From assembly GCF_003116135.1 (NCBI RefSeq), contig NZ_PDOA01000016.1:1-64000 (forward strand): 64,000 nucleotides of DNA. Reading direction: 5' to 3'. The notes under the pieces were generated by a model. It saw nothing but the letters and a program-made list of their open reading frames with translations, did no database searches and was not told the DNA's origin. This document shows, piece after piece, positions 1,574 to 14,609 of the stretch. The position numbers and the translations under genes are program-made. Each line of letters starts with the position of its first letter. The first letter of the stretch is position 1. Source of the stretch: Teichococcus aestuarii. Its GTDB lineage: Bacteria > Pseudomonadota > Alphaproteobacteria > Acetobacterales > Acetobacteraceae.

Positions 1574-3349
1574 TCAGCTCCAGAACAGCAGGATCAGCGG
1601 GGTGCCGACCAGCAGGCAGAGCAGCGCCAGCGGCGTGCCCAGGCGCGCGTAATCTTGGAAGCGGTAGCCGCCCGGCTCCATCACCAGCGTGTTGGACTGG
1701 TGGCCGATCGGGCTGAGGAAGGTGCAGGAGGTGCCGATGCACACCGCCATCAGCATCCCGTCCTGCGACACCCCGGCCACCTCGGCCAGGCCGAGCGCGA
1801 TGGGTGCCATCAGCAGCACCGTGGCGTTGTTCGCCATCACCTCGGAGAGCAGCATGCAGACCAGCAGGATGCCGCCCACCACCGCCCAGCCCGGCAGCGC
1901 CGCCGCCGGTCCGGCCAAGCTCTCCACCAGCAGGGTGATGGTGCCGCTGCGCTCCATCGCCTCGCCCAGCGGGAACAGCGCGCCGAGCAGCACGATCACC
2001 GGCCAGTCCACCGCCGCATAGGCCTCGTCCGGCTTCAGCACGCGGCACAGGATCATCGCCGCCACCACGGCGGTGAAGGCGATGTGGGCCGGCGCCAGCT
2101 CGAACAGCACGGCCAGGATGCCGGCCAGGAACATGCCGCCCGCCAGGATGGCGTGCTGCGGCCGGCCCAGCGTCACGCTGCGCTCGGCCAGGGGCAGCAG
2201 GGAGAGGGCCTGGAAGGCGTCGGCCCGCTTGTCGCGCTGGGCCTGCAGCAGCACCACGTCGCCGCTGCGCAGGACGATCTCGTTCATCCGGTCCGTCACG
2301 CGCCGGCCCTGGCGGGAGACGGCCAGCAGGTTGATGCCGTGCTGGCTGCGCAGCCGCAGCGCCGAAGGCGAGCGGCCGATCAGCGGCGAGCCGGGGCGGA
2401 GGATGGCCTCCACCGCGTCCACCTCGTCGGCCACCAGGGCCTTCAGCCCGTCGCGCGGCTTGCCGCCATCCGGCTCGGTCAGGGACAGGCCGGCCATCTC
2501 CACCAGGGCGCGCAGCGAATCGGCGCTGCCTTCCAGCAGCAGCACGTCCTCCGCCCGCAGCCGCGCCTCGCCCGGCGGGGCCAGGGTGCGGTTGGGGCCG
2601 CGGAACAGGCCGACCACCGTCACATCGCCATCCGCCATGCTCTCCAGCGTGCGGATGGAGAGGCCGATGGCGGCGCTCTTCGGCCCCAGCCGTGCCTCGG
2701 CCACGTAGTCCCCGGCATCGACCTCGACCTTGCCGCCGCGCTTGTCGCCCAGCAGGCGGTTGGCCAGCACCAGATAGGCCACGCCCAGCACGGCGAGCGG
2801 CAGGCCGACCCAGGCGAAGTCGAACAAGGCATAGGGGCCGAGCTCCGTCCGTTCCTGCCGGATGGCGGAGATGATCAGGTTGGGGGGCGTGCCGATCAGC
2901 GTGATCAGTCCGCCCAGCACCGAGCCGAAGGCCAGCGGCATCAGCGCGCGGGAGGGGGCGTAGCCCTCGCGGTAGGCGTTGCGCAGCGCCACCGGCATGA
3001 ACAGCGCCAGCGCGCCCACATTGTTCATGAAGCCCGAGAAGCCGGCGCAGAGGCCGGTCTGCGCCGCCACCTGCAGCCGGGGCCGGCCGCGCATGCCGCC
3101 CAGGCGGCGCAGCAGCAGGTCCACCGTGCCGGCCGCCTGCAGCCCCTTGCTGATGGCCAGCACGGCCACCACCGTCGTCACCGCCGGCTCGGCGAAGCCG
3201 AGGAAGGCCTCCGCCGGCGCCACCTGCCCCGTCAGCACCAGGGCCAGCAGCAGCAGCAGGGCCACCACGTCGTAGCGCACGGGCTGCAGCACGAAGCCCG
3301 CCAGCGCCAGCAGCGCCAGGGCGGAGACGGTCATCTGGTCGGCGGTCAT
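1574..3349 (-). CDS. SLC13/DASS-type permease with two RCK_C (TrkA-C) domains
   Basis: About 591 residues from the chosen ATG (MTADQMTV), which begins directly before the first membrane helix; an upstream in-frame ATG would add 35 non-conserved residues. Membrane helices fill residues about 5-190. Two soluble RCK_C-like domains follow (about 195-380, with segments such as LRAEDVLLLEGS and LRSGDVVLLQAQRD), and then a second membrane half. This is the layout of bacterial SLC13-family anion permeases (sulfate, dicarboxylate) in which RCK_C domains sit between the two transport halves. The segment FLSPIGHQSNTLVMEPGGY resembles the second conserved SLC13 hairpin. The substrate cannot be assigned from the sequence. 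Confidence 0.85.
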   Translation of the reverse strand: MTADQMTVSALALLALAGFVLQPVRYDVVALLLLLALVLTGQVAPAEAFLGFAEPAVTTVVAVLAISKGLQAAGTVDLLLRRLGGMRGRPRLQVAAQTGLCAGFSGFMNNVGALALFMPVALRNAYREGYAPSRALMPLAFGSVLGGLITLIGTPPNLIISAIRQERTELGPYALFDFAWVGLPLAVLGVAYLVLANRLLGDKRGGKVEVDAGDYVAEARLGPKSAAIGLSIRTLESMADGDVTVVGLFRGPNRTLAPPGEARLRAEDVLLLEGSADSLRALVEMAGLSLTEPDGGKPRDGLKALVADEVDAVEAILRPGSPLIGRSPSALRLRSQHGINLLAVSRQGRRVTDRMNEIVLRSGDVVLLQAQRDKRADAFQALSLLPLAERSVTLGRPQHAILAGGMFLAGILAVLFELAPAHIAFTAVVAAMILCRVLKPDEAYAAVDWPVIVLLGALFPLGEAMERSGTITLLVESLAGPAAALPGWAVVGGILLVCMLLSEVMANNATVLLMAPIALGLAEVAGVSQDGMLMAVCIGTSCTFLSPIGHQSNTLVMEPGGYRFQDYARLGTPLALLCLLVGTPLILLFWS

Positions 3350-3455
3350 GCGGGGTTCCGAGAGGAGAGGCCGGCAGAACCGCGTGGCGACGGCCGGGTT
3401 GCCCGGCCAGGCCATGGCCCGCCGGCCGCGCGGCGCGGCCCAGGCATCGGGCATG

Positions 3456-3487
3456 AAAAAGGCCGGGGGCGCAAGGCGCCTCCGGCC
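3456..3487 (-). terminator. Rho-independent terminator of rpsD
   Basis: A 12-bp stem with one G-T wobble (3461-3472 with 3476-3487, 3-nt loop) is followed on the minus strand by five U residues (A run at 3456-3460). It lies about 45 nt past the rpsD stop. A second hairpin (3501-3518, perfect 7-bp stem) precedes it. Confidence 0.7.
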
Positions 3488-3530
3488 GGATGCGGCCAGC
3501 GGGAGCCTCGCGGCTCCCGTCGGCGCTGGA

Positions 3531-4148
3531 TCAGCGCGAGTAGAACTCGATGACCAGGTTCGGCTCCATCTGCACCGGGTAGGGCACGTCGGAGAGCTTG
3601 GGGGCGCGCAGGAAGCGGCCCTTCATCTGGCGGTGGTCGATCTCGAGATACTCGGGCACGTCGCGCTCGCCGGACTGGGCGGCGTCGAGCACGGCGACGA
3701 GCTGCTTCGACTTCTCCTTGACCTCGACGACGTCATTGTCGCGCACGAGGTAGGAGGGGATGTTCACGCGCTTGCCATTGACCGTAATGTGGCCATGGTT
3801 GACGAACTGGCGGGCGGCGAAGGGGGTCACGGCCAACTTCAGGCGGTAGACCACCGCGTCCAGACGGCGCTCCAGCAGCTCGATCAGGTTCTCGGAGGTG
3901 TCGCCCTTGCGGCGCACGGCCTCCTGATAATACTTGCGGAACTGCTTCTCGCCGATGTTGCCGTAGTAGCCCTTGAGCTTCTGCTTGGCCATCAGCTGCA
4001 CGCCGAAGTCGGTCGGCTTCTGCTTGCGGCGCTGGCCGTGCTGGCCGGGGCCGTACTCGCGCTTGGCGACCGGGGACTTGGCGCGGCCCCACAGGTTGAC
4101 GCCGAGGCGGCGATTGATCTTGTACTTGCTTTCCGCGCGCTTCGTCAT
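3531..4148 (-). CDS. rpsD: 30S ribosomal protein S4
   Basis: 205 residues, the standard S4 length. It starts [14 protein letters not shown] and contains the [17 protein letters not shown] region, the helical domain and an S4 RNA-binding fold (about residues 95-160, including [18 protein letters not shown]). S4 binds 16S rRNA early in 30S assembly and in many bacteria represses its own operon. The start is decided by an AAGGAG ribosome-binding site 9-10 nt upstream; longer in-frame readings add only non-conserved sequence. It appears to be a single-gene unit outside the alpha operon, with its own promoter, a leader of about 135 nt and a terminator. Confidence 0.98.
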
Positions 4149-4289
4149 GCGGCGGGCTCCTTCTTGTTGTGCGTACCGTTCGGGTATCGCTGATGTCCCG
4201 GTAGTCCCGAGGCGGCCATGCCGGAGGGGCACGCGCCAGGGGCGGGACGCAGGACAAGCCTGCATCCGCTTTCCCGGAAGGGAGCGCGC

Positions 4290-4318
4290 CTTTAGCGCCG
4301 CGCCGCGCCGCTTGTCAA
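4290..4318 (-). promoter_or_regulatory. Candidate sigma-70 promoter of rpsD
   Basis: On the minus strand a perfect -35 TTGACA (4313-4318) is followed after about 17 nt by CTAAAG/TAAAGG (4289-4295) as the -10. The predicted start near 4283 leaves an untranslated leader of about 135 nt before rpsD. Confidence 0.5.
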
Positions 4319-4349
4319 ACCATGTCTCCGGCGCCTACTGCGCATCCTC

Positions 4350-4556
4350 ATGGTGACACGCGCGGAGATCCTGATCCTGGGGCTGAAGGCCGGGGTGACG
4401 GGCAGTCTGGTGGGCGGGCTGATGCTGGGCATCGGCCTCGGCCTCGTCGTCAACAACGTGCATGCGGGCTGGGTGCTGGTGCTGCCGGCGGCGCCGCTCA
4501 GCGGCATGCTCGGCTACTGGCTGGCCAGGCGGCTGGCCCGGCAACTGCCGCCCTGA
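4350..4556 (+). CDS. Small two-helix membrane protein, function unknown
   Basis: 68 residues starting MVTRAEILILGLKAG. Two hydrophobic segments (about 7-32 and 38-57) are separated by a short NNVHAGW turn, and the tail is basic (RRLARQLPP). The positive-inside rule suggests a hairpin with the C-terminus in the cytoplasm. The pattern resembles tiny DUF2798-like membrane proteins, but the match is loose. It diverges from rpsD. No clear ribosome-binding site is visible, so it could be leaderless, and the start is uncertain. Confidence 0.55.
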   Translation: MVTRAEILILGLKAGVTGSLVGGLMLGIGLGLVVNNVHAGWVLVLPAAPLSGMLGYWLARRLARQLPP

Positions 4557-4812
4557 GCCGCGGGCGGCGCGCCGCCGCCCCTCCCCCGCTCCCCCTGCCG
4601 CGCCGGGCCCTGGTGCGGCGCGCTCCCGCACATGCCCTTCATGCCGCCGGCGGCATGGACCCCGCAGAGGGATGCGGCCCCGCAAAGCCCGTGCGGACGG
4701 CGCAGGTCACGCCGTATTGTTTCGCATTTAGAATGTAATCCACAAATGCTTCCCTGCTTTCGGGGCCGCGCGTGGCGTTGCGGTTTCCAAACCAAAGGGA
4801 GGGAATAGAGAT

Positions 4813-5751
4813 ATGGCGAGAGAGCAATCCTCATCCGCCGCCGTGGCGGATGCCGGCGCCGCGTCCCGGATGCGGTTCTTCGACGACGGCATCACGATCG
4901 ATCTCGACGCCGAGCTGCGGAAGAAGCACGGCTCCGACATCAGCATACCGGTGTTCCGCGTCGATGCCGACGCTGTCGAGGGCTTCAACATCGACAAGGA
5001 CGCCTACTACGCCAGCAGCGCCAGCAAGCTGATGACCGGCTTCTTCGCGGAGCTGCTGTCCACCGCGCTGGGCTCGCGGAACGGCGGCGACGTCAGCCGC
5101 TTCGAGACGAAGTATGCGCTGGGCGGCAAGGAGATGATTCTCCACATCGGCGACGACGTCTTCGTCTATGCGCCCGACAACCACCGCACCATCAACGTCA
5201 GCGCGCGCGACGACGTCTTCGTCTACGCGCCCGGCAATGACGGCAACATCATCGCGCGCGGCGACGACGTCTTCATCTTCGCGCCGGACAATGATGGCGG
5301 GCTGAACGCCTTCGCGCGCTCCGTGGCCGATGCGGCGGCGAAGGCCAAGGGCACGTCGCCGCAATCGAGCGACATCGTCGGCGCCGCCCGGGCGAAGGCG
5401 GAAGCCGACGCCTACACCTTCATCTATGCCAAGGACAACCAGGGCAACGTCCACGCCGCGGCCGATGCCGACGCCACGGCGAAGGCGGAGGCCGACATCT
5501 TCGCCCTGCGCGGCGACGCCAAGGCGGTGGCGGTGGCCCTGGCCGATGCTGAGTCCAAAATCCTGGTCTACGCGCCAGGCGGCGGCAAGGTGAGCACGAA
5601 CGGAGACGCGGATGCCGTGGCCATGGCCAGCGCCGTGGCGGAAAGCCGCCAGGGCGACGCGACGGCGCTGAGCGACACCACGGCGGTCGCCTCCGTGGAG
5701 ACCGACGTCATCCTGTGGCAGGGCGGCTACGACCACTACTTCTTCGCCTGA
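4813..5751 (+). CDS. Ala/Asp-rich repeat protein with DDVFVYAPDN-type beta repeats, function unknown
   Basis: 312 residues, acidic, no cysteine and no signal peptide, preceded by a strong GGGAGGGAA ribosome-binding site. After a non-repetitive N-terminal part (1-112) come diverged repeats built on a short beta strand plus a turn: DDVFVYAPDN, DDVFVYAPGN, DDVFIFAPDN, TFIYAKDNQGN, KILVYAPGGG. Later copies are separated by long Ala-rich alternating stretches (ADADATAKAEAD, DAVAMASAVAES). The chain ends VILWQGGYDHYFFA. The regular hydrophobic-x-hydrophobic strands with Asn/Gly turns suggest a beta-solenoid or amyloid-like fold; that is inference. I recognise no named family. Several neighbouring genes encode Ser/Ala-rich proteins with a similar strand motif. 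Confidence 0.8.
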   Translation: MAREQSSSAAVADAGAASRMRFFDDGITIDLDAELRKKHGSDISIPVFRVDADAVEGFNIDKDAYYASSASKLMTGFFAELLSTALGSRNGGDVSRFETKYALGGKEMILHIGDDVFVYAPDNHRTINVSARDDVFVYAPGNDGNIIARGDDVFIFAPDNDGGLNAFARSVADAAAKAKGTSPQSSDIVGAARAKAEADAYTFIYAKDNQGNVHAAADADATAKAEADIFALRGDAKAVAVALADAESKILVYAPGGGKVSTNGDADAVAMASAVAESRQGDATALSDTTAVASVETDVILWQGGYDHYFFA

Positions 5752-5758
5752 CCCTTCC

Positions 5759-5781
5759 GGGCCGGGGCGGCGCCCCGGCCC
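5759..5781. terminator. Bidirectional terminator hairpin between converging genes
   Basis: A perfect 10-bp GC stem (5759-5768 with 5772-5781, loop GGC) lies between the stops of the repeat protein and the TAXI-like gene. No U tract follows on either strand, so Rho-independent activity is uncertain. Confidence 0.45.
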
Positions 5782-5799
5782 TCCGGCACGCCCTTGCCT

Positions 5800-6768
5800 T
5801 CAGCGCTCCGGCACGGCGAAGCGGGTCCAGCCCGGCAGCGCCGCCGCCATGTCGAACTCGCGCCATTTCGGGTGGCGCGGCGGCCGCCGCAGCGCCCCGG
5901 CATGCGCCAGCAGGCTCTGCCCGAAGCGGACCAGCCGCGCATGCCGCTCGCTGCCCGCCGGCCAGGCATAGACCGCGAGGACGGCACCGAGCGACAGCGT
6001 CTCCACCGCCTCGCCGCCGCCGATCAGCCGCGGATAGTCGGCCGCCGACAGCCGGGCGCGCTGGTAGGTCTGCAGCATGGCCGGGGTGGCGGGCAGCGGC
6101 AGGAAGCGCAGCCCCGCGCCGGTCTCCAGCCCCGAGAAGAGGCGCGCCGGCTTGCCCGCGACATAGATCATGGCGGCGATCTCGCCGCGCCGCAGATGCT
6201 CCAGCGCCACGTCCTGCGGCGCATGCGCCAGGCGCGCGCCGACGCCCAGCAGGTCCAGCAGCACCGAGGCCGTCATCGCGGTGCCGCTGCCGCGCACATC
6301 CACATTGACGGCGCGGCCCTCAAGCTGCCCGATCTCCGTCACGTCGCCGGTGGCGAGGAGGTGGATCTCCTCGTCGTAGAGCTTCGCGATGTAGTGGATG
6401 CGCTGCGCGATGTTCGGGTAGAGCCGCTGGCGCAGGGCGAAGGCCAGCACGTCGGACTGGACGATCGCCATGTCCACGCCGCGCAGATACATCAGGTCGG
6501 CGATGTTCTGCAGCGAGCCCTTGCCGAGGATGGGCAGCAGGCGGAGCCGGTCGCCATCGTCCAGCTCCGCCGCGAGGTCGGAGGCGATGCGGATATAGGT
6601 GCCGTCGATGCCGCCGGCGATGAGCCCGAGCACGCCGCCATTGGCCACATCGGCGGGGTTGCGGCGCGCGCCCGGCGCGGGGGCTTCCTGGGCATGGGCC
6701 CCGGCGGCGGGCGCCAGGGCCGCCAGCAGGGCGAGGCCGCGCCGCGTCGGCCCCGTATCTGCCGTCAC
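5800..6768 (-). CDS. TAXI-type TRAP solute receptor (orphan)
   Basis: 322 residues from a GTG that overlaps the stop of the upstream gene (GTGA). An upstream in-frame reading would run far into that gene and lacks a good start. A signal-peptide-like N-terminus (LALLAALAPAAGAHAQ, about residues 9-24) precedes a TAXI-like fold: GGIDGTYIRIASDLA, a Q-S-D triplet after VDMAIV, and GRAVNVDVRGSGTAMTAS resemble the receptor family that feeds TRAP permeases. No TRAP permease is adjacent; the nearest is 42 kb away with its own receptor. Translational coupling to a Cys-rich exported protein suggests a local role, perhaps not transport. The ligand is unknown. Confidence 0.75.
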   Translation of the reverse strand: MTADTGPTRRGLALLAALAPAAGAHAQEAPAPGARRNPADVANGGVLGLIAGGIDGTYIRIASDLAAELDDGDRLRLLPILGKGSLQNIADLMYLRGVDMAIVQSDVLAFALRQRLYPNIAQRIHYIAKLYDEEIHLLATGDVTEIGQLEGRAVNVDVRGSGTAMTASVLLDLLGVGARLAHAPQDVALEHLRRGEIAAMIYVAGKPARLFSGLETGAGLRFLPLPATPAMLQTYQRARLSAADYPRLIGGGEAVETLSLGAVLAVYAWPAGSERHARLVRFGQSLLAHAGALRRPPRHPKWREFDMAAALPGWTRFAVPER

Positions 6769-7757
6769 CGCGTCGCCAGGCGGGAGGTGGAGGGGGCGGA
6801 GGGGCGGGCGGGCGCCTCGCGGCCGGCCTCCGCCATGGCCCGCTGCCGCTCCGCGGCGGCGCATTCGGCGAACAGGGCGCGTATGGCGGAGGGCGTGCTG
6901 TCGCAGCCGGCGGGATTGCCGTCGGCGCGGCCGAGCACCGCGGCGGAGGGGGCCGGGGCATTCTGGGATGGCGCGGCGGGGAGCGCGGCGCGCGTCTGGG
7001 TCGGCCTGGCGGGTTCGGGCGTGCCGGCGCGGACGCGCAGGGCGCCGCGGGCCGGCTCCTCCTCCTGCCGCGCCACCGGGGGCGGTGCGGCCGCGGCGCT
7101 GCATTCGGGGTAGAGGGCGGTGTTCAGGCCGGGCACCTCGCAGAAGGCCGGGCGGGGCGCGAGGCGGGCGCCGCGGAAGCCGCCGGGGGCCGGGTTGCCG
7201 TTGACAGGTGGCGCGGGCTGCGCCGGGGGCACCGGCGGCAGGGCGCTGGGCGGCAGGCCGGAGCTGGGCACCGGCATGAGCTGCGAGGCGGTGGCGGTCT
7301 CCGGATTGGTGCCGTGGCTCAGCGCGATCGGCACGCCGCCATCCTTGATGCAGGGGCGGCCGATGCGGATGGCTGCCGCGCGGAAGCTCTCGACGCTGCA
7401 CATGATCTCGCGCGCCAGCACCTCGTCCTTCAGGGCGGAGACGGTGAGGGCCACGTTGTTGCGGATCTGGCATTCCTCGTCGATGGTGCTGAAGGCGCCG
7501 CCGATGCCGAAGAGCGGCATGGTGGCCCCCAGCGAGACGCCGGTGGCGCAGGGGTTCAGCCCGTAGATGCTGCCGAGGCCGATGGACGGCGCCTGGTGGT
7601 GGTTGCGCGGCAGGCCGTAATTGTAGACGTCGCTGCGCTGGTAGAATTCCTGGCGCTGCACCTCCTGCGCCGCGGCGGGGGAGGAAGCGAGGGCGGCCAA
7701 GGCCGCCCCCACCACCAGGAAGACGCGGAAGCGTCGGATCATGCGGCTCATGGTCAT
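6765..7757 (-). CDS. Exported Pro-rich protein with paired cysteines, function unknown
   Basis: 330 residues. A clear signal peptide (hydrophobic about 12-25, AAA-Q cleavage near 30) is followed by a domain with four cysteines (NPCATG, EECQIR, IMCSVE, RPCIKD; about 69-136). A Pro/Ala-rich linker follows (about 160-200). Two copies of a Cys-pair motif come next: FCEVPGLNTALYPECSAAA and GCDSTPSAIRALFAECAAAE, both C-x(n)-AL-aromatic-x-E-C. The even cysteine spacing suggests periplasmic disulfides. Its stop overlaps the TAXI-type gene start, so the two are translationally coupled. I recognise no family. Confidence 0.75.
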   Translation of the reverse strand: MTMSRMIRRFRVFLVVGAALAALASSPAAAQEVQRQEFYQRSDVYNYGLPRNHHQAPSIGLGSIYGLNPCATGVSLGATMPLFGIGGAFSTIDEECQIRNNVALTVSALKDEVLAREIMCSVESFRAAAIRIGRPCIKDGGVPIALSHGTNPETATASQLMPVPSSGLPPSALPPVPPAQPAPPVNGNPAPGGFRGARLAPRPAFCEVPGLNTALYPECSAAAAPPPVARQEEEPARGALRVRAGTPEPARPTQTRAALPAAPSQNAPAPSAAVLGRADGNPAGCDSTPSAIRALFAECAAAERQRAMAEAGREAPARPSAPSTSRLATR

Positions 7758-7781
7758 GGCTCCCGCGTCTCCCTGTTCAGA

Positions 7782-8105
7782 TCAGCGCCAGCCGCCGTAG
7801 CTGTTGCTCTTGGAGAAGGCGCCGCCGCTGGTGGTGCTGCCGATGAAGCCGTTGGAGGTCTTGCCGACCGCACCGCTCGCGCTCGTGCTGCTCGTGCCGG
7901 AGCCGGCGCCATGGCCGGTGCCCGACCAGGCGCTGTTGCTGGAGAAGGCGCCGGTCGCGCCGGCAGCGTAGCCGAACTTGCCGCTCTCGATCGAGGAAGT
8001 GGCCGAGCTGCCCGAACCGGCGACGGAGGAGCTGCCCGACGGGCCAGCGAGCACGGGAGCGCTGAGGCCGACGACGGCAATGGTGGCGAGCAGGATCTTG
8101 CGCAT
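7782..8105 (-). CDS. Small exported Ser/Gly-rich protein, function unknown
   Basis: 107 residues. A textbook signal peptide (MRKILLATIAVVGLSAPVLA, cleavage after residue 20) is followed by about 85 residues made almost entirely of Ser, Gly, Ala and Thr with spaced aromatics (KFGYAAG, SNSAWSG, SNGFIGS, SNSYGG). The quasi-repeat of about 13-20 residues (S-x-aromatic-G) suggests an extended or fibre-forming surface protein; this is inference. A ribosome-binding site (AGAGGGAAC) lies 5-6 nt before the ATG. It sits about 25 nt upstream of the Cys/Pro-rich exported protein, so the three minus-strand genes at 5.8-8.1 kb may form one operon. Confidence 0.75.
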   Translation of the reverse strand: MRKILLATIAVVGLSAPVLAGPSGSSSVAGSGSSATSSIESGKFGYAAGATGAFSSNSAWSGTGHGAGSGTSSTSASGAVGKTSNGFIGSTTSGGAFSKSNSYGGWR

Positions 8106-8305
8106 GATATGTTCCCTCTGTTCTAGTTTGCGCTCCGCAAAGCGAAGCTAGGATGGGGCTTTCGCCCCGGCGTAAGCGGCTGGCCGTCAACGTGACAGCG
8201 CCTGGCGGTCAGCCGCCCACCTCGTGCCGCATCCTGGCCTGGCCAGGAGCGGAAACCGGCATGGGGATGCAGGGCGCGGCCGTGCCGCGCGTCGCTCGCT
8301 TCCCG

Positions 8306-8518
8306 CTACGTCCTGAAAATCGTCGCGAAGGCGCTCAGCCCGGCCTTGCTTCCGGCGCCCGGCCCCGCGGCCGCCGACCCGCGCAGCACCAGCACCTTCC
8401 GTGTGCCGTCGCTGGCGGCCAGGGCGCTGGCCTGGCTGGTGGCGGCGCCCATCTGGCGCCCGGCGCAGGATGAGACACTTGCCGTGCCGCTGCTGGCGGC
8501 CGCTTCGCTCCACCGCAT
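8306..8518 (-). CDS. Small Ser/Ala-rich protein, function unknown
   Basis: 70 residues, starting MRWSEAAASSGTASV after a very strong ribosome-binding site (AAGGAGGAAAAAG), which is the main evidence that it is real. No signal peptide. An Ala/Ser-alternating stretch (about 12-36) leads into the strand RKVLVLRGSAA and a Gly/Ala tail ending AFATIFRT. The layout of alternating Ala/Ser, strand and Gly parallels the 117-aa protein at 8.7-9.0 kb and the late repeats of the 312-aa protein at 4.8 kb. An inverted repeat lies just upstream. No known family. Confidence 0.65.
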   Translation of the reverse strand: MRWSEAAASSGTASVSSCAGRQMGAATSQASALAASDGTRKVLVLRGSAAAGPGAGSKAGLSAFATIFRT

Positions 8519-8553
8519 CTTTTTCCTCCTTCACCCTCTTTTTTGAGAGGGTC

Positions 8554-8595
8554 GCACATCCCGCTCCAGGCATTCTGCCACTTCACGGGATGTGC
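8554..8595. promoter_or_regulatory. Perfect 10-bp inverted repeat upstream of the 70-aa gene
   Basis: GCACATCCCG (8554-8563) and its complement (8586-8595) are separated by 22 nt, in an AT-richer gap and 36-77 nt before the start codon at 8518. It could be an operator or an mRNA stem; no regulator is identified. Confidence 0.35.
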
Positions 8596-8690
8596 ATTTC
8601 TATTTTTATACTGAAACGGTATTTCGAGGCGGACGGTTTGGGAAGCTCATATTTCGCCGTCGTAATCACAAGAAGGGGATGACCCGGCGC

Positions 8691-9044
8691 TCAGGCGAAG
8701 CCGAACTCCTGCGCGAAGGGTGGCGAGGGCAGGCCGGAGCCCGGCAATTCTTCGGCGGGCAGCGCGTGAAGGAAGGGGTCGTGCGGGTCTTCCGGGGCGA
8801 TCTCCGGCGGGATCTCCGGGAGCGTGCCCGTGCCGCCTCCCTCCGGAAGGAAGCCGGCATGGGCCTCGGCCTGCTGATGGACCCCCTCCCCGGCAGGGCT
8901 GCCACCGATCGACACGGTGGCGGAGGAATAGGCGAAGCTGCTGCCTTCGCCTTCCACCCAGATTTGGGCCTCGGAGCGGGCTGATGCGGCGGCCTCTCCG
9001 GACTCGCTGGCACTTTCGGAACTGGCGGTGCTGTGACTGGCCAT
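8691..9044 (-). CDS. Small Ser/Ala/Glu-rich acidic protein ending in Phe-Ala, function unknown
   Basis: 117 residues from the ATG at 9044, chosen because GGAGG lies 7 nt upstream; an in-frame ATG 7 codons earlier has no such site. The N-terminus is strongly alternating (SSESASESGEAAASARSEAQ, residues about 8-27), then strand-like QIWVEGEGSSFAYSSATVSI, then an acidic Pro-rich tail ending FAQEFGFA. No signal peptide and no cysteine. The alternating-then-strand layout and the aromatic Phe-Ala terminus recall the 312-aa repeat protein (ends HYFFA). No known family; a surface or secreted role is speculative. Confidence 0.7.
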   Translation of the reverse strand: MASHSTASSESASESGEAAASARSEAQIWVEGEGSSFAYSSATVSIGGSPAGEGVHQQAEAHAGFLPEGGGTGTLPEIPPEIAPEDPHDPFLHALPAEELPGSGLPSPPFAQEFGFA

Positions 9045-9172
9045 GAGACGTCCTCCGGTGTTCATTTTTGTATCGTATCTATACCGGCAGGCCCCCGCCC
9101 CTCAATCACAATTCTTTACATTCCGGGCCGGCCCGATGGCACAGGCCCGTGATACCGGAAGGAACCTCGCCC

Positions 9173-9493
9173 ATGCCGCGGGTCCATCTCAGGCTTGCCG
9201 TGCTGCCCGTGCTGGCAGGCCTTTTCCTGCCGGGCATGGCCCTGGCTGCGGGAAGCGGCTGGCAGCTCTGCCAGGGGGGCGGCGCGGCGCGCGCCACCTG
9301 CAGCGTGAGTTGCAATGGCGAGAGCCGCCGCCAGAGCTGCGGCACGGGGGAGATGTGCGAGTGCCAGTGCGCGCCTCGGCCGCAATGCCGCTGCCGGGCG
9401 ATGGAGCAGGAAACACGCTCGCCCGGGGCGCCCGGCGGCCGGCTGGCACCGGCCGGGCCGGCAGGGCCGGCAGGGCTGAGCCGGCAGGGCTGA
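9173..9493 (+). CDS. Small exported Cys-rich protein, function unknown
   Basis: 106 residues from the ATG at 9173, which has GGAAGGAA 8 nt upstream and begins a good signal peptide (hydrophobic 7-22, cleavage after ALA near 24). The mature part has nine cysteines within about 45 residues, in patterns such as CSVSC and CECQC, then a Pro/Gly/Ala tail with repeated GPA triplets. Such a small, Cys-dense exported protein suggests disulfide stabilisation or metal binding. It diverges from the 117-aa protein across an AT-richer gap and converges with an ABC transporter gene. No family recognised. Confidence 0.65.
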   Translation: MPRVHLRLAVLPVLAGLFLPGMALAAGSGWQLCQGGGAARATCSVSCNGESRRQSCGTGEMCECQCAPRPQCRCRAMEQETRSPGAPGGRLAPAGPAGPAGLSRQG

Positions 9494-9530
9494 GAAGGTG
9501 GGTGGTCCGCCCCCGGCCCGGGGGCGGCGG

Positions 9531-11327
9531 TCAGGCCGCGACCTGCAGTGCCTCGGACTGGCGGCGCACCATCTCCTGGTAGGGGCCGGGGCGGCGCATC
9601 AGCAGGTCCGGCGCGCCGTCCTGCACCACCTGCCCGCCCTCCATCACCACGATGCGGTCGAAATTGGTCAGAGTCGCCAGCCGGTGCGCCACGGCGATGA
9701 CGGTGCGGCCCTGCATCAGCCCGTCCAGCGCCTTCTGCACCTCGGCCTCGGACTCCGAGTCGAGGGCGGAGGTGGCCTCGTCCAGCAGCAGGATCGGCGC
9801 GTCCTTCAGCAGCGCGCGGGCGATGGCGAGGCGCTGGCGCTGGCCGCCCGAGAGCTTGGCGCCGCGGTCGCCCACGATGGTGTCGAAGCCTTCCGGCAGC
9901 GCCTCGATGAAGTCGCGGCAGCGGGCGGCCTCGGCGGCGGCCAGCACCTCGGCGTCGGTGGCGTCCGGCCGGGCGTAGCGGATGTTCTCCAGCACGGTGC
10001 GGTGGAACAGCGAGACGTCCTGCGGCACGACGGCGATCATGTCGGCCAGGCTCTCGCGGGTGGCCTGGGCGATGTCCTGCCCGTCGATCAGCACGGCGCC
10101 TTCCTGCGGCGCGGTGTGGCGCTGCAGCAGGGTCAGCAGGGTGGACTTGCCGGCGCCGGAGCGGCCGACCACGCCGACCTTCTGGCCGGGCTGGATGGCC
10201 AGCTCCAGGCTGCGCAGCACCGGCGCGCTGCCCTCGGGGGCCGAGGGGTAGCGGAAGGTGACGTTGTGGAACACCACCTCGCCGCCGCGCGCGGCCAGGC
10301 CATGGGCGTTCTCGACATCCGGCATGTCGTGCGGCACCAGCAGGGCGGCCAGCGCCTCGCGCATCCGCGCCACGTACTGGGTCAGGTCCACCAGCGCCAT
10401 GGCGAGGTCGCGGCTGGCGTGCAGGATGGTGAAGCCGAGGGTGCAGACCAGCACGATGTCGCCCGTGGTGGCACGGCCGAGCTGCCAGAGATGCACCACC
10501 CAGCCCAGCAGCATGGCGGTGAGCACGGCGGTGGCGGCGCCATGCACCAGGCGCAGCTTCTCCAGATAGCGCAGGCTGGCGCGGCGGGCGGCGCTTTCCT
10601 CGGCCAGGGCGGTGTCGAGGCGGGCCGATTCGCGGCCGAAGGCGCCGAAGGCGCGCACCAGGGAGAAGTTCTGCACCACATCGACCAGCTGGCCATCGAC
10701 GGTCGCGGCGCGGCCGGCGAAGCGGTCGTGCAGCGCCTCGCCCTTCTGGCCCAGCCAGGCGACGCCGGCGGCCAGGGCCGCGGCCACCACCACGAGGCAG
10801 CCGGCCATGATCGGGTCGACCGTGGCGAGGAAGACGATGGACAGGGTGACGGCCACCGCCGGCGGCACGGTGTGCCAGGTGAAGTTCTGCAGCACGGTGA
10901 AGGCCGCCGTGCCGGTGGCGCTGATGCGCGCCGCCAGCGTGCCGGCCGAGCGGTTGGCGAAGTAGCCCGGCGAGTGGCCGGCGAGGTGGCGGAACAGCTC
11001 GGCCCGCATCGAGGCGGTGGCGCGCGGGAAGCGGTCCGCCGCGATCCAGCCGCCGACCCGCCAGAGCATGTTGTCGGCCGTGATGATGCCGGCGAGGATG
11101 GCGAAGGCCACCCACACCGCCGCCGCGCCCGCCTGAGACGGGCCGCCCGAGAGCGTGTCGATCAGGTTCTTAACCGCGTAGTTCGCCCCTACGGAGCAGC
11201 CCACCGCACCCAGCACCGCCAGCATGATGGCGACGTGGCTGCCCGCCTGCGGCCGCAGGTGGCGCAGCAGGAAGCCAACGGGGCGCCGGGCGAGGCGCAA
11301 CAGGTCGCTGTCGTCGGCACGGGACAT
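9531..11327 (-). CDS. ABC exporter, fused membrane and ATPase domains (MsbA/AtmA-like)
   Basis: 598 residues from the ATG at 11327 (GAGAGG upstream; an earlier in-frame ATG lacks support). Six membrane helices (about 30-320) are followed by a nucleotide-binding domain with Walker A GRSGAGKST, signature LSGGQRQRLAIARALL, Walker B ILLLDEATSALD and the switch VAHRLAT. It is a half-transporter that dimerises to export lipids, drugs or peptides; the substrate is not predictable. No HlyD-like adaptor or peptidase domain is present, so it is not an obvious type I secretion ABC protein for the adjacent repeat proteins. A glycosyltransferase diverges from it. Confidence 0.9.
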   Translation of the reverse strand: MSRADDSDLLRLARRPVGFLLRHLRPQAGSHVAIMLAVLGAVGCSVGANYAVKNLIDTLSGGPSQAGAAAVWVAFAILAGIITADNMLWRVGGWIAADRFPRATASMRAELFRHLAGHSPGYFANRSAGTLAARISATGTAAFTVLQNFTWHTVPPAVAVTLSIVFLATVDPIMAGCLVVVAAALAAGVAWLGQKGEALHDRFAGRAATVDGQLVDVVQNFSLVRAFGAFGRESARLDTALAEESAARRASLRYLEKLRLVHGAATAVLTAMLLGWVVHLWQLGRATTGDIVLVCTLGFTILHASRDLAMALVDLTQYVARMREALAALLVPHDMPDVENAHGLAARGGEVVFHNVTFRYPSAPEGSAPVLRSLELAIQPGQKVGVVGRSGAGKSTLLTLLQRHTAPQEGAVLIDGQDIAQATRESLADMIAVVPQDVSLFHRTVLENIRYARPDATDAEVLAAAEAARCRDFIEALPEGFDTIVGDRGAKLSGGQRQRLAIARALLKDAPILLLDEATSALDSESEAEVQKALDGLMQGRTVIAVAHRLATLTNFDRIVVMEGGQVVQDGAPDLLMRRPGPYQEMVRRQSEALQVAA

Positions 11328-11493
11328 GGCGGGTGGCCTCTCACTTCCGGAGCACATGACCGTGAGTGCACGGCGCATCTGCGTTCATGCGGAGGGAACG
11401 CCAGCAACAAGACGAAATCGTGGCGAAGGTTGCCGAATCTGGACCGCATTCAGGTGCCAGAAGAGGCTCGAGAGACAACGGAGATCGGACCCA

Positions 11494-12552
11494 ATGCGTA
11501 TCGCGCAGATCGCTCCCCTGACGGAAGCCGTTCCGCCGAAGCTGTATGGCGGCACCGAGCGGATCGTGTCCTACCTGACCGAGGAGCTGGTGGAGCTCGG
11601 GCACGAGGTGACGCTGTTCGCCAGCGGCGACTCGATCACCAAGGCGAAGCTCGCGCCGATGTGCCGCAAGGCGCTGCGCCTCGACCCCTCGGTGCGCGAC
11701 GCCAACGCGCCGCTGACGCTGATGCTGGAGCAGGTCTACCGCCGCCGGCACGAGTTCGACCTGCTGCACTTCCACCTGGACTACCTGCCCTTCCCGCTGT
11801 TCTCGCGGCAGAGCGTGCCCTTCGTGACCACCCTGCACGGCCGGCTGGACCTGCCGGAGCTGCAGCCGGTGTTCGACACCTTCAACGAGGTGCCGGTGGT
11901 CTCGATCTCGGACAACCAGCGCCTGCCGCTGCCGCAGGCGCGCTTCGCCGGCACGATCTACCACGGCCTGCCCGAGAAGCTGCTGACGCCGCTGCCGGGC
12001 GTCACGCCGGGCTACCTGGCCTTCCTCGGCCGCATCGCCCCCGAGAAGCGCTGCGACCGGGCGATCGAGATCGCCATCGCCACCAACACGCCGCTGAAGA
12101 TCGCGGCCAAGGTGGACCGCGTGGACGTCGACTACTTCGAGACCAAGATCAAGCCGATGCTGGCGCATCCGCTGATCGAGTTCATCGGCGAGATCGACGA
12201 GACGCAGAAGCCGGGCTTCCTCTCGGGCGCCATCGGCCTGCTGACGCCGATCGACTGGCCGGAGCCCTTCGGCCTGGTGATGATCGAGGCGATGGCCTGC
12301 GGCACGCCCGTCATCGCCTTCCGCCACGGCTCGGTGCCCGAGGTGATCGACGAGGGCGTGACCGGCTTCGCGGTGAACAGCATGGCCGAGGCGATCAGCG
12401 CCGTCGGCCGGCTGAAGGCGCTGCCCCGCGCCGCCGTGCGCGCCCGCTTCGAGCAGCGCTACACCGCCCGCCGCATGGCGGAGGACTATGTGTCCCTCTA
12501 CGAGGGGCTGTGCCGCCGCGAGCCCTCCTCCGTGCTCGCCGCCGCCGAGTGA
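11494..12552 (+). CDS. GT4-family glycosyltransferase
   Basis: 352 residues with a GT-B fold. The N-terminal acceptor domain begins MRIAQIAPLTEAVPPKLYGG, whose GGTER loop is typical of GT4 enzymes. The C-terminal donor domain has FLGRIAPEKRCDRAIEIA and the nucleotide-sugar signature PEPFGLVMIEAMACGTPVIA (E-x7-E). The start has GGAG 11 nt upstream. It resembles glycosyltransferases found in alphaproteobacterial stress or glycan loci; neither sugar nor acceptor can be named. It stands alone between an ABC exporter (divergent) and lepA. Confidence 0.9.
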   Translation: MRIAQIAPLTEAVPPKLYGGTERIVSYLTEELVELGHEVTLFASGDSITKAKLAPMCRKALRLDPSVRDANAPLTLMLEQVYRRRHEFDLLHFHLDYLPFPLFSRQSVPFVTTLHGRLDLPELQPVFDTFNEVPVVSISDNQRLPLPQARFAGTIYHGLPEKLLTPLPGVTPGYLAFLGRIAPEKRCDRAIEIAIATNTPLKIAAKVDRVDVDYFETKIKPMLAHPLIEFIGEIDETQKPGFLSGAIGLLTPIDWPEPFGLVMIEAMACGTPVIAFRHGSVPEVIDEGVTGFAVNSMAEAISAVGRLKALPRAAVRARFEQRYTARRMAEDYVSLYEGLCRREPSSVLAAAE

Positions 12553-12720
12553 GGCGGGCGCCCCGGCGCCCCCTTCCCTTCCGCCTCGAACCAGGGCGCG
12601 CCGGTGGCGCGCCCTGCTGCGTTCCGGGGCCGCCACCCGGGGCCGCCACCCAGGGTCGCCACAAGGCCGCCGCCCGGCCGCGGCGGCGGCGCCAAACCGC
12701 ATCCGGCACGCCCCGCCCGC

Positions 12721-12749
12721 TTTGAATCCGGCGCCGCTTGCCCTATTGG
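12721..12749 (+). promoter_or_regulatory. Candidate promoter of lepA
   Basis: TTTGAA (12721-12726), a 17-nt spacer and TATTGG (12744-12749) precede lepA. The predicted start is near 12756, about 50 nt before the ATG. Confidence 0.35.
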
Positions 12750-12803
12750 CAGGGGTCAAATCCACGGCGGGTACCCCACCGCCCCGATCGCCGCCGGAAG
12801 CCC

Positions 12804-14609
12804 ATGACCAATACCCCCCTGTCGCGCATCCGCAACTTCTCGATCATCGCCCATATCGACCACGGCAAATCCACCCTGGCCGACCGCCTGATCCAGGCCA
12901 CTGGCTCCGTCGCGCTGCGCGACATGAAGGAGCAGATGCTCGACAGCATGGAGCTGGAGCAGGAGCGCGGCATCACCATCAAGGCCGCCTCCGTTCGGCT
13001 CGACTACAAGGCCAAGGACGGCAACGACTACGTCCTGAACCTGATGGACACCCCAGGCCATGTGGACTTCGCCTACGAGGTGAGCCGCAGCCTGGCCGCC
13101 TGCGAGGGGTCGCTGCTGGTGGTCGACGCCTCCCAGGGCGTCGAGGCGCAGACGCTGGCCAATGTCTACCAGGCGATCGACGCCAACCACGAGATCGTGC
13201 CGGTCCTCAACAAGATCGACCTCCCCGCGGCGGAGCCGGAGCGGGTGAAGCAGCAGATCGAGGACGTGATCGGCCTCGACGCCTCGGAGGCGGTGGAGAT
13301 CTCCGCCAAGTCCGGCCTGAACATCGAGGGCGTGCTGGAGGCCATCGTCCACCGCCTGCCCGCGCCCCAGGGCGACCCGGACGCGCCGCTGAAGGCGCTG
13401 CTGGTCGATAGCTGGTACGACCCCTATCTCGGCGTCATCATCCTGATCCGGGTGAAGGACGGCACCATCCGCAAGGGCCAGAAGATCCGCTTCATGGCCG
13501 AGGGCACCACCCAGACGGTGGACAGCGTCGGCGTCTTCCGCCCCAAGATGACGCCTGTGGACTACCTCGGGCCGGGCGAGATGGGCTACCTCAACGCCGC
13601 CATCAAGACGGTGGCCGAGACCAATGTCGGCGACACCATCACCGACGACCGCAACCCGGCGGCCGAGCCGCTGGCGGGCTTCAAGCCCTCCATCCCGGTG
13701 GTCTGGTGCGGCCTCTACCCGGTGGACGCGGACGATTTCGAGAAGCTGCGCGATTCGCTCGGCAAGCTGCGGCTGAACGACGCCTCCTTCCACTTCGAGG
13801 CGGAAAGCTCGGCGGCGCTGGGCTTCGGCTTCCGCTGCGGCTTCCTCGGGCTGCTGCACCTGGAGATCATCCAGGAGCGGCTCTCGCGCGAGTTCGACCT
13901 CGACCTGATCGCGACCGCCCCCTCGGTGGTCTACAAGCTGACGACGAACAAGGGCGAGGCGATCGACCTGCACAACCCGGCCGACATGCCGGACCCGACG
14001 CTGATCGAGAAGATCGAGGAGCCCTGGATCAAGGCCACCATCATGGTGCCGGACGAGCATCTGGGCAGCATCCTGACGCTCTGCTCCGAGCGGCGCGGCC
14101 AGCAGGTGGAGCTGACCTATGTCGGCAACCGCGCCATGGCGGTCTACCGCCTGCCGCTGAACGAGGTGGTGTTCGACTTCTACGACCGCCTCAAGAGCGT
14201 CAGCCGCGGCTACGCCTCCTTCGACTACGTGATGGACGGCTATGACGAGGGCGACCTCGTGAAGATCTCCATCCTGGTCAACAACGAGCCGGTGGATGCC
14301 CTCTCCTTCATGGCGCACCGCACCCAGGCGGAGCGGCGCGGCCGCTCCATCTGCGAGAAGCTGAAGGAGCTGATCCCCCGCCAGCTCTTCAAGATCCCGA
14401 TCCAGGCGGCGATCGGCGGCCGCGTCATCGCCCGCGAGACGATCTCGGCGATGTCGAAGGACGTCACCGCCAAGTGCTATGGCGGCGACATCTCCCGCAA
14501 GCGCAAGCTCCTCGAGAAGCAGAAGGAGGGCAAGAAGCGCATGCGGCAGTTCGGCAAGGTCGAGATCCCGCAATCGGCCTTCATCGCCGCCCTCAAGATG
14601 GACAGCTGA
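12804..14609 (+). CDS. lepA: Elongation factor 4 (LepA), ribosome back-translocase GTPase
   Basis: 601 residues, the usual EF4 length. G1 is AHIDHGKST (residues 16-24), switch ERGITIK, G3 DTPGH, G4 NKIDLP, then domains II and III, the EF-G-like domain and the EF4-specific C-terminal domain ending in a basic segment ([17 protein letters not shown]). It acts on stalled or mis-translocated ribosomes and supports biogenesis. The start at [17 protein letters not shown] matches the family; an upstream in-frame ATG adds 22 non-conserved residues. Confidence 0.97.

What the first reader, a model, noticed from the sequence alone, without database searches (positions are those of the whole stretch)
4813..9493. 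Locus of Ser/Ala/Gly-rich proteins of unknown function sharing a short strand module
Six adjacent small or mid-size genes have no recognisable family. In three of them (312 aa, 117 aa, 70 aa) an Ala/Ser-alternating stretch leads into a short strand-turn: KILVYAPGGG, QIWVEGEGSS, KVLVLRGSAA. The others are exported: a Ser/Gly-rich protein, a Cys/Pro-rich protein and a Cys-rich protein. An orphan TAXI-type receptor is embedded. Shared sequence style plus co-location suggests one undescribed surface, fibre or coat-like system.
Basis: partly seen in the sequence, partly recalled or inferred. Interest (0 to 1): 0.7.

Follow-up and report, generated by a model that had tools for sequence, protein, structure and literature searches.

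The report
Undescribed secreted-protein gene cluster in Acetobacteraceae
A block of fast-evolving bacterial genes is gained or lost together and pairs a small Ser/Gly-rich exported protein with a cysteine-patterned exported protein and, here, an alanine-lined beta-sheet protein; it looks like an undescribed cell-surface or matrix system, but no function has been shown.

Summary
The genes are real, but the reason given for grouping them is not: the "shared strand module" of the 312-, 117- and 70-aa proteins is at chance level. Better evidence came from relatives. The block sits between rpsD/a 68-aa gene and an MsbA-like ABC gene in 3 of 16 assessable same-genus genomes; the other 13 intervals have none of it. 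In a fourth genome (Roseomonas sp. E05) the 312-aa, Cys/Pro-rich and Ser/Gly-rich genes lie together at another site. The widest link is a pair: a small exported Ser/Gly-rich protein upstream of an exported protein with a Cys4 domain (also phrog_20531). A fixed rule finds it at 14 of 18 loci plus 3 of 4 checked later, against 2 of 171 control genes, both inside this cluster. The 312-aa protein has a real internal repeat; AlphaFold2 gives it 18-20-residue strands with alanine on one face, without significant fold match. TAXI is not core: broken in one relative, absent in E05. Best reading, inferred: an undescribed envelope/matrix system, analogous to curli or RTX matrix systems but no tested member. 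A pile-up in an insertion hot spot is the main rival.

The parts
4813..5751 (+). p312: 312-aa protein, no N-terminal signal peptide by eye; Ala-alternating repeat protein, residues ~107-303 predicted all-beta
   Evidence: homologs 78, 69 and 37% identical (41% over 228 residues); Ala lag-2 count 30 vs 12.0+-2.8 in 1000 shuffles, strand-turn starts at 116/135/153/202/250/299; AF2
4705..4749 (+). block upstream of p312 conserved in three species; promoter-like by eye only
   Evidence: 3 of 3 syntenic species; not recognisable in E05; no consensus sigma-70 match in 4100-9600
5800..6768 (-). orphan TAXI-type solute-binding protein, GTG start overlapping the Cys/Pro stop by 4 nt; passenger, not core
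   Evidence: PF16868 48.4 bits, over cut-off; TIGR02122 68 bits, below cut-off 84.35; remnant only in P. deserti, no orthologue in the E05 locus
6765..7757 (-). Cys/Pro-rich exported protein (330 aa) with a Cys4 domain at residues ~51-150
   Evidence: (phrog_20531 E 1.8e-6)
7782..8105 (-). Ser/Gly-rich exported protein (107 aa), 24 bp upstream of the Cys/Pro gene
8174..8203 (-). block upstream of the Ser/Gly gene, with TGTCAC...TGACG, conserved in three species
8306..8518 (-). p70: small protein, no signal peptide by eye, weakly constrained; may not be a gene
   Evidence: dN/dS 0.68 and 0.66
8691..9044 (-). p117: small acidic protein, no signal peptide by eye, weakly constrained
   Evidence: dN/dS 0.65 and 0.74
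9063..9090 (.). AT-rich conserved element between the divergent p117 and Cys-rich genes
   Evidence: GTATCGTATCTATAC here; recognisable by eye in P. rhizosphaerae and P. deserti
9173..9493 (+). Cys-rich exported protein (106 aa, 9 Cys)
   Evidence: also in P. rhizosphaerae and P. deserti; E05 no match

Best explanation
The core of the block is a cell-envelope or extracellular-matrix system. SHOWN: (1) a small Ser/Gly-rich protein with a signal-like N-terminus is encoded a short way upstream of a signal-bearing protein with a conserved four-Cys domain in most relatives examined; (2) in this genus a third gene, p312, is with them in 4 of 4 genomes that have it, at two different chromosomal sites; (3) p312 is an internally repeated protein with alanine at every second position over long stretches. 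PREDICTED: p312 residues ~107-303 are all-beta, ending in six 18-20-residue strands with one alanine face, which would suit a flat, tightly packed solenoid-like sheet. INFERRED: the Ser/Gly protein is Sec-exported and forms or fills an extracellular coat; the Cys4 protein is a disulphide-bonded envelope partner that holds or guides it (one Novosphingobium relative fuses the domain to an OmpA-like domain); p312 is the matrix or coat component and leaves the cell by type I secretion, since it has no signal peptide by eye, an RTX protein gene lies between the Cys4 gene and p312 in E05, and the window's genome has an unlinked PrtD/HlyD-type exporter. p70, p117 and the Cys-rich protein are lineage-specific accessories; the TAXI gene is a passenger.
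For: Block present between rpsD/68-aa and ABC in 3 of 16 assessable genomes; 13 of 13 other intervals fetched carry none of it (also without low-complexity masking). In E05 the order Ser/Gly - Cys/Pro - RTX - p312 is kept at another site, while its rpsD-ABC interval has no cluster gene. Ser/Gly-rich exported ORF within 1.5 kb upstream on the same strand at 14 of 18 Cys4-domain loci (18-153 bp away in 10, 399-812 bp in 4) vs 2 of 171 control genes, both the TAXI genes of this cluster; later 3 of 4 more, from two genera already in the set. Three such small exported ORFs by eye in L056, two plus another exported ORF in L058. In L056, L057 and L058 a different 276-296-aa family without signal peptide by eye follows the Cys4 gene. 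An N-terminal p312 fragment (44.6% over 65 aa, E 8e-12) lies upstream of the pair in Paeniroseomonas aquatica. p312 repeat and alternation; AF2 pLDDT 77-91 in every 10-residue block from 121 to 300. OmpA-like fusion in L042 (best NCBIfam match E 1.3e-28 but 100.1 bits, below its cut-off 175). RTX repeats in the E05 gene, E 6.3e-8, 32.9 vs cut-off 23 bits. PrtD over cut-off (685.5 vs 510.15 bits) with an HlyD-like neighbour by eye.
Against: No experiment or curated family shows surface location or function. p312 is rare: 4 of 397 family genomes, one genus (with about 5 candidates per genome scored; a single-sequence search of 120 genomes gave only the own genome and one weak hit). Foldseek gives nothing at E<=0.001 in PDB or BFVD (best 0.043 and 0.030, probabilities at most 0.16). 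AF2 of the Cys/Pro protein is poor (mean pLDDT 48.4, pTM 0.19). p312 residues 1-106 and 304-312 are below pLDDT 50 and the alignment had 4 sequences. The pair fails the rule in 4 of 18 loci (L036, L037, L039, phage L044) and in L050; L036 and L039 look Ser/Gly-rich by eye, L037 shows none. The rule was written after I had seen most of these loci, and the loci are not independent. The Ser/Gly proteins of different loci may be alike in composition only. The T1SS is unlinked and no secretion signal was tested. Ser/Gly dN/dS is 1.05 against P. deserti and, against E05, p312 0.92 and Ser/Gly 0.86.
Confidence: 0.45

Rival explanations
1. Hot-spot pile-up: unrelated, fast-evolving orphan genes accumulated in a permissive site between rpsD/68-aa and the ABC gene. 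Only the Ser/Gly + Cys4 pair is a functional unit; p312, p70, p117, TAXI and the Cys-rich gene are neighbours by chance.
For: The same interval holds unrelated genes in 6 of the 13 other genomes and, among scored ORFs of 50 aa or more, only the 68-aa gene in 7 (contents judged by eye); TAXI is broken in P. deserti and absent from the E05 locus; p70, p117 and the Cys-rich gene were not found in the E05 locus; p70 and p117 are weakly constrained; no shared module.
Against: p312 remains beside the pair in E05 at another site and as a fragment upstream of the pair in Paeniroseomonas; in the 4 genomes where p312 was found the pair was there too.
Confidence: 0.33
2. Phage-related cargo: the Cys4 domain comes from phages and the block is a remnant or moron-like insertion.
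For: Cys4 domain matches phrog_20531 and EBPR podovirus 1 gp21, in a region with a stabilization-protein gene and a holin-like gene by eye.
Against: No other PHROGs match among the 10 proteins scanned; only 1 of 50,697 phage records matched the one Cys4 protein used as query, and one IMG/VR scan confirmed none; p312 had no relative in the phage records or in one IMG/VR scan; 17 of the 22 Cys4 loci examined are bacterial with a Ser/Gly neighbour.
Confidence: 0.07
3. Envelope metal- or redox-sensing unit: the Cys4 and Cys-rich proteins bind metal or sense redox in the periplasm, and the Ser/Gly protein is a spacer.
For: Cysteine content (8 in 330 aa, 9 in 106 aa).
Against: No metal-binding family hit; no regulator gene recognised by eye in the block; does not explain the repeated p312.
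Confidence: 0.08
4. Defence or toxin cluster.
For: Block-wise gain and loss at a variable site.
Against: PADLOC: 0 of 7 proteins hit at E<=0.01; no toxin or catalytic family over a cut-off.
Confidence: 0.03

Closest known systems
Curli (CsgA/B with CsgEFG) and Fap (FapA-F)
   Same: Small exported repetitive subunits, accessory envelope proteins, beta-solenoid subunits (PMC12822426, search passages seen). Here: a small exported Ser/Gly-rich protein next to an envelope-type partner.
   Different: No curlin or CsgG-type hit among the window proteins; no outer-membrane pore recognised in the block; p312 has no signal peptide by eye; Foldseek rows for FapC and CsgA are not significant (E 0.47 and 0.85).
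Caulobacter holdfast anchor HfaA/HfaB/HfaD
   Same: Alphaproteobacterial surface system with a curlin-like small protein (HfaA) and an adhesin-like partner (HfaD) (PMC6707917, search passages seen).
   Different: No NCBIfam hit for these proteins (not checked whether Hfa models are in the library); no HfaB-like pore gene recognised in the block.
RTX biofilm-matrix systems such as Vibrio vulnificus CabABC
   Same: Extracellular matrix protein with its own type I secretion system (PMC6978666, abstract start in a search listing; RTX nature of CabA recalled). E05 carries an RTX protein gene between the Cys4 gene and p312.
   Different: p312 has no RTX repeats by Pfam; the T1SS genes found lie on another contig.
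phrog_20531 proteins
   Same: Share the Cys4 domain.
   Different: Phage family of unknown function; no Ser/Gly-rich partner by the rule in the one phage locus examined.
Flat silk-like beta-solenoids with a small-residue core (e.g. RiAFP; recalled, no call)
   Same: Small residues at alternating positions of flat sheets.

Membership tests
Curli | CsgA/B curlin repeats | tested here: not met
   No curlin family hit in Pfam or NCBIfam for the seven window proteins at E<=1; none in Pfam at E<=0.1 for nine small neighbour ORFs of L034, L035, L038, L056 and L058
Curli | CsgG-type outer-membrane pore | tested here: inconclusive
   Not among the seven proteins; no genome-wide search was run
Fap | fapABCDEF operon with FapF pore | tested here: inconclusive
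   No such hit among the seven proteins; presence of Fap models in the libraries not checked
Functional amyloid (by behaviour) | self-assembly into cross-beta fibres | not testable with these tools
   needs purified protein
RTX proteins | HemolysinCabind nonapeptide repeats | tested here: not met
   p312, p117 and p70 not hit; met only by the 187-aa neighbour in E05
T1SS substrates | C-terminal signal and export by ABC/HlyD/TolC | not tested
   an exporter is present elsewhere in the genome; no signal test available
phrog_20531 / Cys4-domain family | profile match with the conserved Cys pattern | tested here: met
   E 1.8e-6, residues 70-150; 14-sequence alignment with P7, C20, G34, D43, C46, C70 invariant and C86 nearly so
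TAXI solute-binding proteins | PF16868 / TIGR02122 profile | tested here: inconclusive
   PF16868 48.4 bits over its cut-off 27; TIGR02122 68 bits under its cut-off 84.35
TAXI-TRAP transporter | adjacent DctQM-type permease | tested here: inconclusive
   none recognised by eye among the called neighbours; no family scan of all neighbours was run
Holdfast anchor Hfa | HfaA/HfaB/HfaD homologs | tested here: inconclusive
   no NCBIfam hit, but presence of the models in the library not checked

The most novel reading that the evidence does not exclude
An undescribed proteobacterial envelope/matrix system whose core is one or more Ser/Gly-rich exported subunits plus a Cys4-domain envelope protein, with an exchangeable third component without signal peptide: here a flat, alanine-cored beta-solenoid (p312), elsewhere a separate 276-296-aa family; the set can sit at different chromosomal sites as a unit.
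Probability: 0.35. Interest if true: 0.75.

Novelty: new variant of a known kind. Interest (0 to 1): 0.5.

Why it matters
If right, a recurring gene pair that Pfam and NCBIfam do not name marks a surface or matrix system in several genera of Alpha- and Betaproteobacteria, and gives a concrete target (the pair plus p312) for testing how such bacteria build coats without recognised curli or Fap genes in the locus. The alanine-faced long-strand repeat of p312 would be an unusual protein architecture. If wrong, it is a clear example of orphan genes accumulating at a hot spot beside rpsD.

Tried and rejected
Shared strand module as a family link: rejected. An own-genome second p312 hit (C30, E 0.003) and weak hits in G120, G132 and G107 (E 0.13-0.48): by eye chance frames of other genes. 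A G002 hit (E 9e-4) did not recur with the profile. p312 relatives in plasmids, phage records and IMG/VR (one scan each): none. A Cys4 scan of IMG/VR with one query: 25 pattern matches, none confirmed. A plasmid search with the E05 second Cys4 protein: none. Class-level search with the Cys4 profile: own genome plus 2 of 289, but at most 17 candidates per genome were scored in the rows shown, so it is insensitive; of the two, L051 looks like carbamoyl-phosphate synthase by eye, a false match, and L050 is a plausible relative without Ser/Gly neighbour by the rule. Search for the 276-296-aa family: 0 of 397, with no positive control in the set, so uninformative. Solved-structure sequence searches for p312 and Cys/Pro: best E 0.096 and 0.6. 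Rfam, 3000-13000: none. Promoter scan, 4100-9600: no consensus match. Literature: seven searches listed nothing whose title or abstract start names this cluster; a claim of absence rests on these alone. Homology of p117 with the E05 RTX protein is not shown (no tblastn hit at 1e-4). p312 to the 276-296-aa family: 21% in a forced alignment and no tblastn hit, so not claimed.
Full report
WHAT IS THERE. The window lies in a high-GC genome (G000, 5.2 Mb; GC ~0.68-0.78 per 2 kb). All seven genes of the finding are present. Five run on the minus strand (p117, p70, Ser/Gly-rich, Cys/Pro-rich, TAXI); p312 and the Cys-rich gene flank them on the plus strand. TAXI overlaps the Cys/Pro gene by 4 nt. Pfam names only TAXI over a cut-off; NCBIfam names it below its cut-off; PADLOC names none; PHROGs adds phrog_20531 for the Cys/Pro protein (p117, p70 and TAXI were not sent to PHROGs).

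ARE THE GENES REAL? Against P. rhizosphaerae and P. deserti, dN/dS is 0.39 and 0.43 for p312, 0.43 and 0.52 for Cys/Pro, 0.41 for TAXI (one relative), 0.52 and 0.47 for Cys-rich, 0.38 and 1.05 for Ser/Gly, 0.68 and 0.66 for p70, 0.65 and 0.74 for p117, against 0.17 for the flanking ABC gene and 0.04 for rpsD. Against the more distant E05 the values are 0.92 (p312), 0.47 (Cys/Pro) and 0.86 (Ser/Gly), where divergence and alignment make them weak. The block evolves fast, and p70 and p117 are only loosely constrained.

THE SHARED MODULE IS NOT SUPPORTED. Three of three profile-profile comparisons are at noise level, as are the two BLASTP comparisons made. Smith-Waterman scores were reached by 69, 115 and 21 of 500 shuffles for p312-p117, p312-p70 and p117-p70; the last is the only hint. 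A rule imitating the module fires in most shuffles of each protein (486, 367 and 308 of 500). What is real is internal to p312: alanines two positions apart 30 times against 12.0+-2.8 in 1000 shuffles (z 6.4), and strand-turn starts at residues 116, 135, 153, 202, 250 and 299, spacings 19, 18, 49, 48, 49. p117 has a weaker Ala/Ser alternation (z 2.8), p70 less (z 1.9).

THE BLOCK AS A UNIT. rpsD and the ABC gene are in 17 of 17 same-genus genomes; in 16 they lie on one contig (not G107). In 3 of these 16 (window, P. rhizosphaerae, P. deserti) the cluster lies between them: all seven genes in the window and P. rhizosphaerae; in P. deserti p312, Cys/Pro, Ser/Gly and Cys-rich by tblastn, a TAXI remnant, and p70 and p117 by position only. 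I fetched the interval from the other 13: none had a tblastn hit to a cluster gene, with or without low-complexity masking, nor a Ser/Gly-rich ORF by the rule, while ends of rpsD and the ABC gene and the 68-aa gene were found in 13 of 13. Six of the 13 hold other genes and seven show only the 68-aa gene among scored ORFs of 50 aa or more, so the site is a hot spot; what those genes are was judged by eye. In E05 the rpsD-ABC interval lacks the cluster, and p312 (40% over 243 aa), the Cys/Pro gene (46%) and the Ser/Gly gene (34%) lie together elsewhere, with a second Ser/Gly gene and an RTX protein gene and without detected TAXI, p70 or Cys-rich orthologues.

HOW WIDE. p312 was found in 4 of 397 family genomes, one genus, and Cys/Pro in 10 of 397; both scored only about 5 candidates per genome, so these are lower bounds. 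In Paeniroseomonas aquatica a 65-aa p312 N-terminal fragment (44.6%, E 8e-12) lies upstream of two Ser/Gly-rich ORFs and the Cys/Pro gene. The Cys4 domain was aligned for 14 sequences including Burkholderia, Novosphingobium (fused to an OmpA-like domain, below the NCBIfam cut-offs), Variovorax and EBPR podovirus 1. The Cys-rich protein rang in 4 of 299 family genomes, two of them weakly, with up to 16 candidates scored; P. deserti has it too.

THE PAIR. I applied one fixed rule (signal-like N-terminus, 80-260 aa, Ser+Gly+Thr+Asn+Ala at least 60%, few charges) to the 1.5 kb upstream of each Cys4 gene. It was met at 14 of 18 loci, 18-153 bp away in 10 and 399-812 bp in 4, and at 2 of 171 control genes; both of these are the TAXI genes of this cluster and its P. 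rhizosphaerae copy. The misses are L036, L039, L037 and the phage. L036 and L039 carry Ser/Gly/Asn-rich frames by eye; L037 has none. Five further hits not in that set were checked afterwards: two Burkholderia and one Novosphingobium meet the rule, L050 does not (1275 bp available), and L051 is a false match of the profile. That makes 17 of 22 Cys4 loci. The rule was written after I had looked at most of these loci, the loci are not phylogenetically independent, and the signal test is crude. By eye, three such ORFs precede the Cys4 gene in L056, and two plus a Pro/Val-rich exported one in L058. In L056, L057 and L058 a second family of 276-296 aa without signal by eye follows it; its similarity to p312 (21% in a forced alignment) is not evidence of homology.

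STRUCTURE. AlphaFold2 of p312 with four sequences has mean pLDDT 62.7 and pTM 0.61; residues 1-106 and 304-312 are below 50; every 10-residue block from 121 to 300 is 77-91. Six strands of 18-20 residues (163-182, 188-205, 212-231, 236-253, 259-278, 283-300) have mostly alanine or other small residues on one face. Foldseek lists entries that I know as beta-helices or fibrils (SufB/D, FHA secretion domain, FapC, CsgA), but none at E<=0.001; BFVD likewise. The Cys/Pro model is poor.

SECRETION. p312, p117 and p70 lack a signal peptide by eye. Among the matches listed, the genome has one PrtD-type exporter over the cut-off, on another contig, with an HlyD-like gene beside it by eye. The neighbouring ABC gene is MsbA-like and below the cut-off of each of the 25 best of 194 NCBIfam matches; it is in all 17 genomes whether or not the cluster is there, so it is not specific to it. 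Export of p312 by T1SS is inference.

WHAT IT WORKS LIKE. The arrangement recalls curli, Fap, the holdfast anchor and RTX matrix systems (PMC12822426 and PMC6707917, search passages seen; PMC6978666, abstract start in a listing), but no defining domain of these was found in the block, and genome-wide tests for CsgG or FapF were not made. I therefore do not file it as a member. Most likely it is an undescribed envelope/matrix system (0.45); a pile-up around a real Ser/Gly + Cys4 pair is the main rival (0.33).

Noticed in passing
window 4149-9533 and the homologous intervals L067-L079: The interval between rpsD/68-aa gene and the MsbA-like ABC gene is a hot spot: 6 of 13 other genomes hold unrelated genes there (by eye: HxlR-like regulator plus oxidoreductase, acyltransferase-like, patatin-like, one other).
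   Followed up: partly
window 4350-4556: A 68-aa conserved small membrane-like protein next to rpsD, found in 13 of 13 fetched intervals, has no NCBIfam family at E<=0.01.
   Followed up: no
window 9063-9090, 8174-8203, 4705-4749, ~8600-8627: Conserved AT-rich or dyad-like blocks upstream of p117/Cys-rich, Ser/Gly and p312 (three species by eye) and of p70 (window and P. rhizosphaerae only); possible co-regulation, regulator unknown.
   Followed up: no
L056:5283-6134, L057:11298-12125, L058:11209-12096: A 276-296-aa protein family without Pfam hit (one member also without NCBIfam hit) and no signal peptide by eye follows the Cys4 gene in three loci.
   Followed up: partly
L035:6179-7226 (G131:C10): Roseomonas sp. 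E05 has a second, diverged Cys4 gene with its own small exported Ser/Gly-rich neighbour.
   Followed up: partly
L042:5620-6744: Novosphingobium humi Cys4 domain fused to an OmpA-like domain (below the equivalog cut-offs).
   Followed up: no
L084:3646-4449 and L019:10696-11448: Similar glycerophosphodiesterase-like genes (by eye) lie near the PrtD/HlyD genes in the window's genome and next to p312 in E05; may be coincidence.
   Followed up: no
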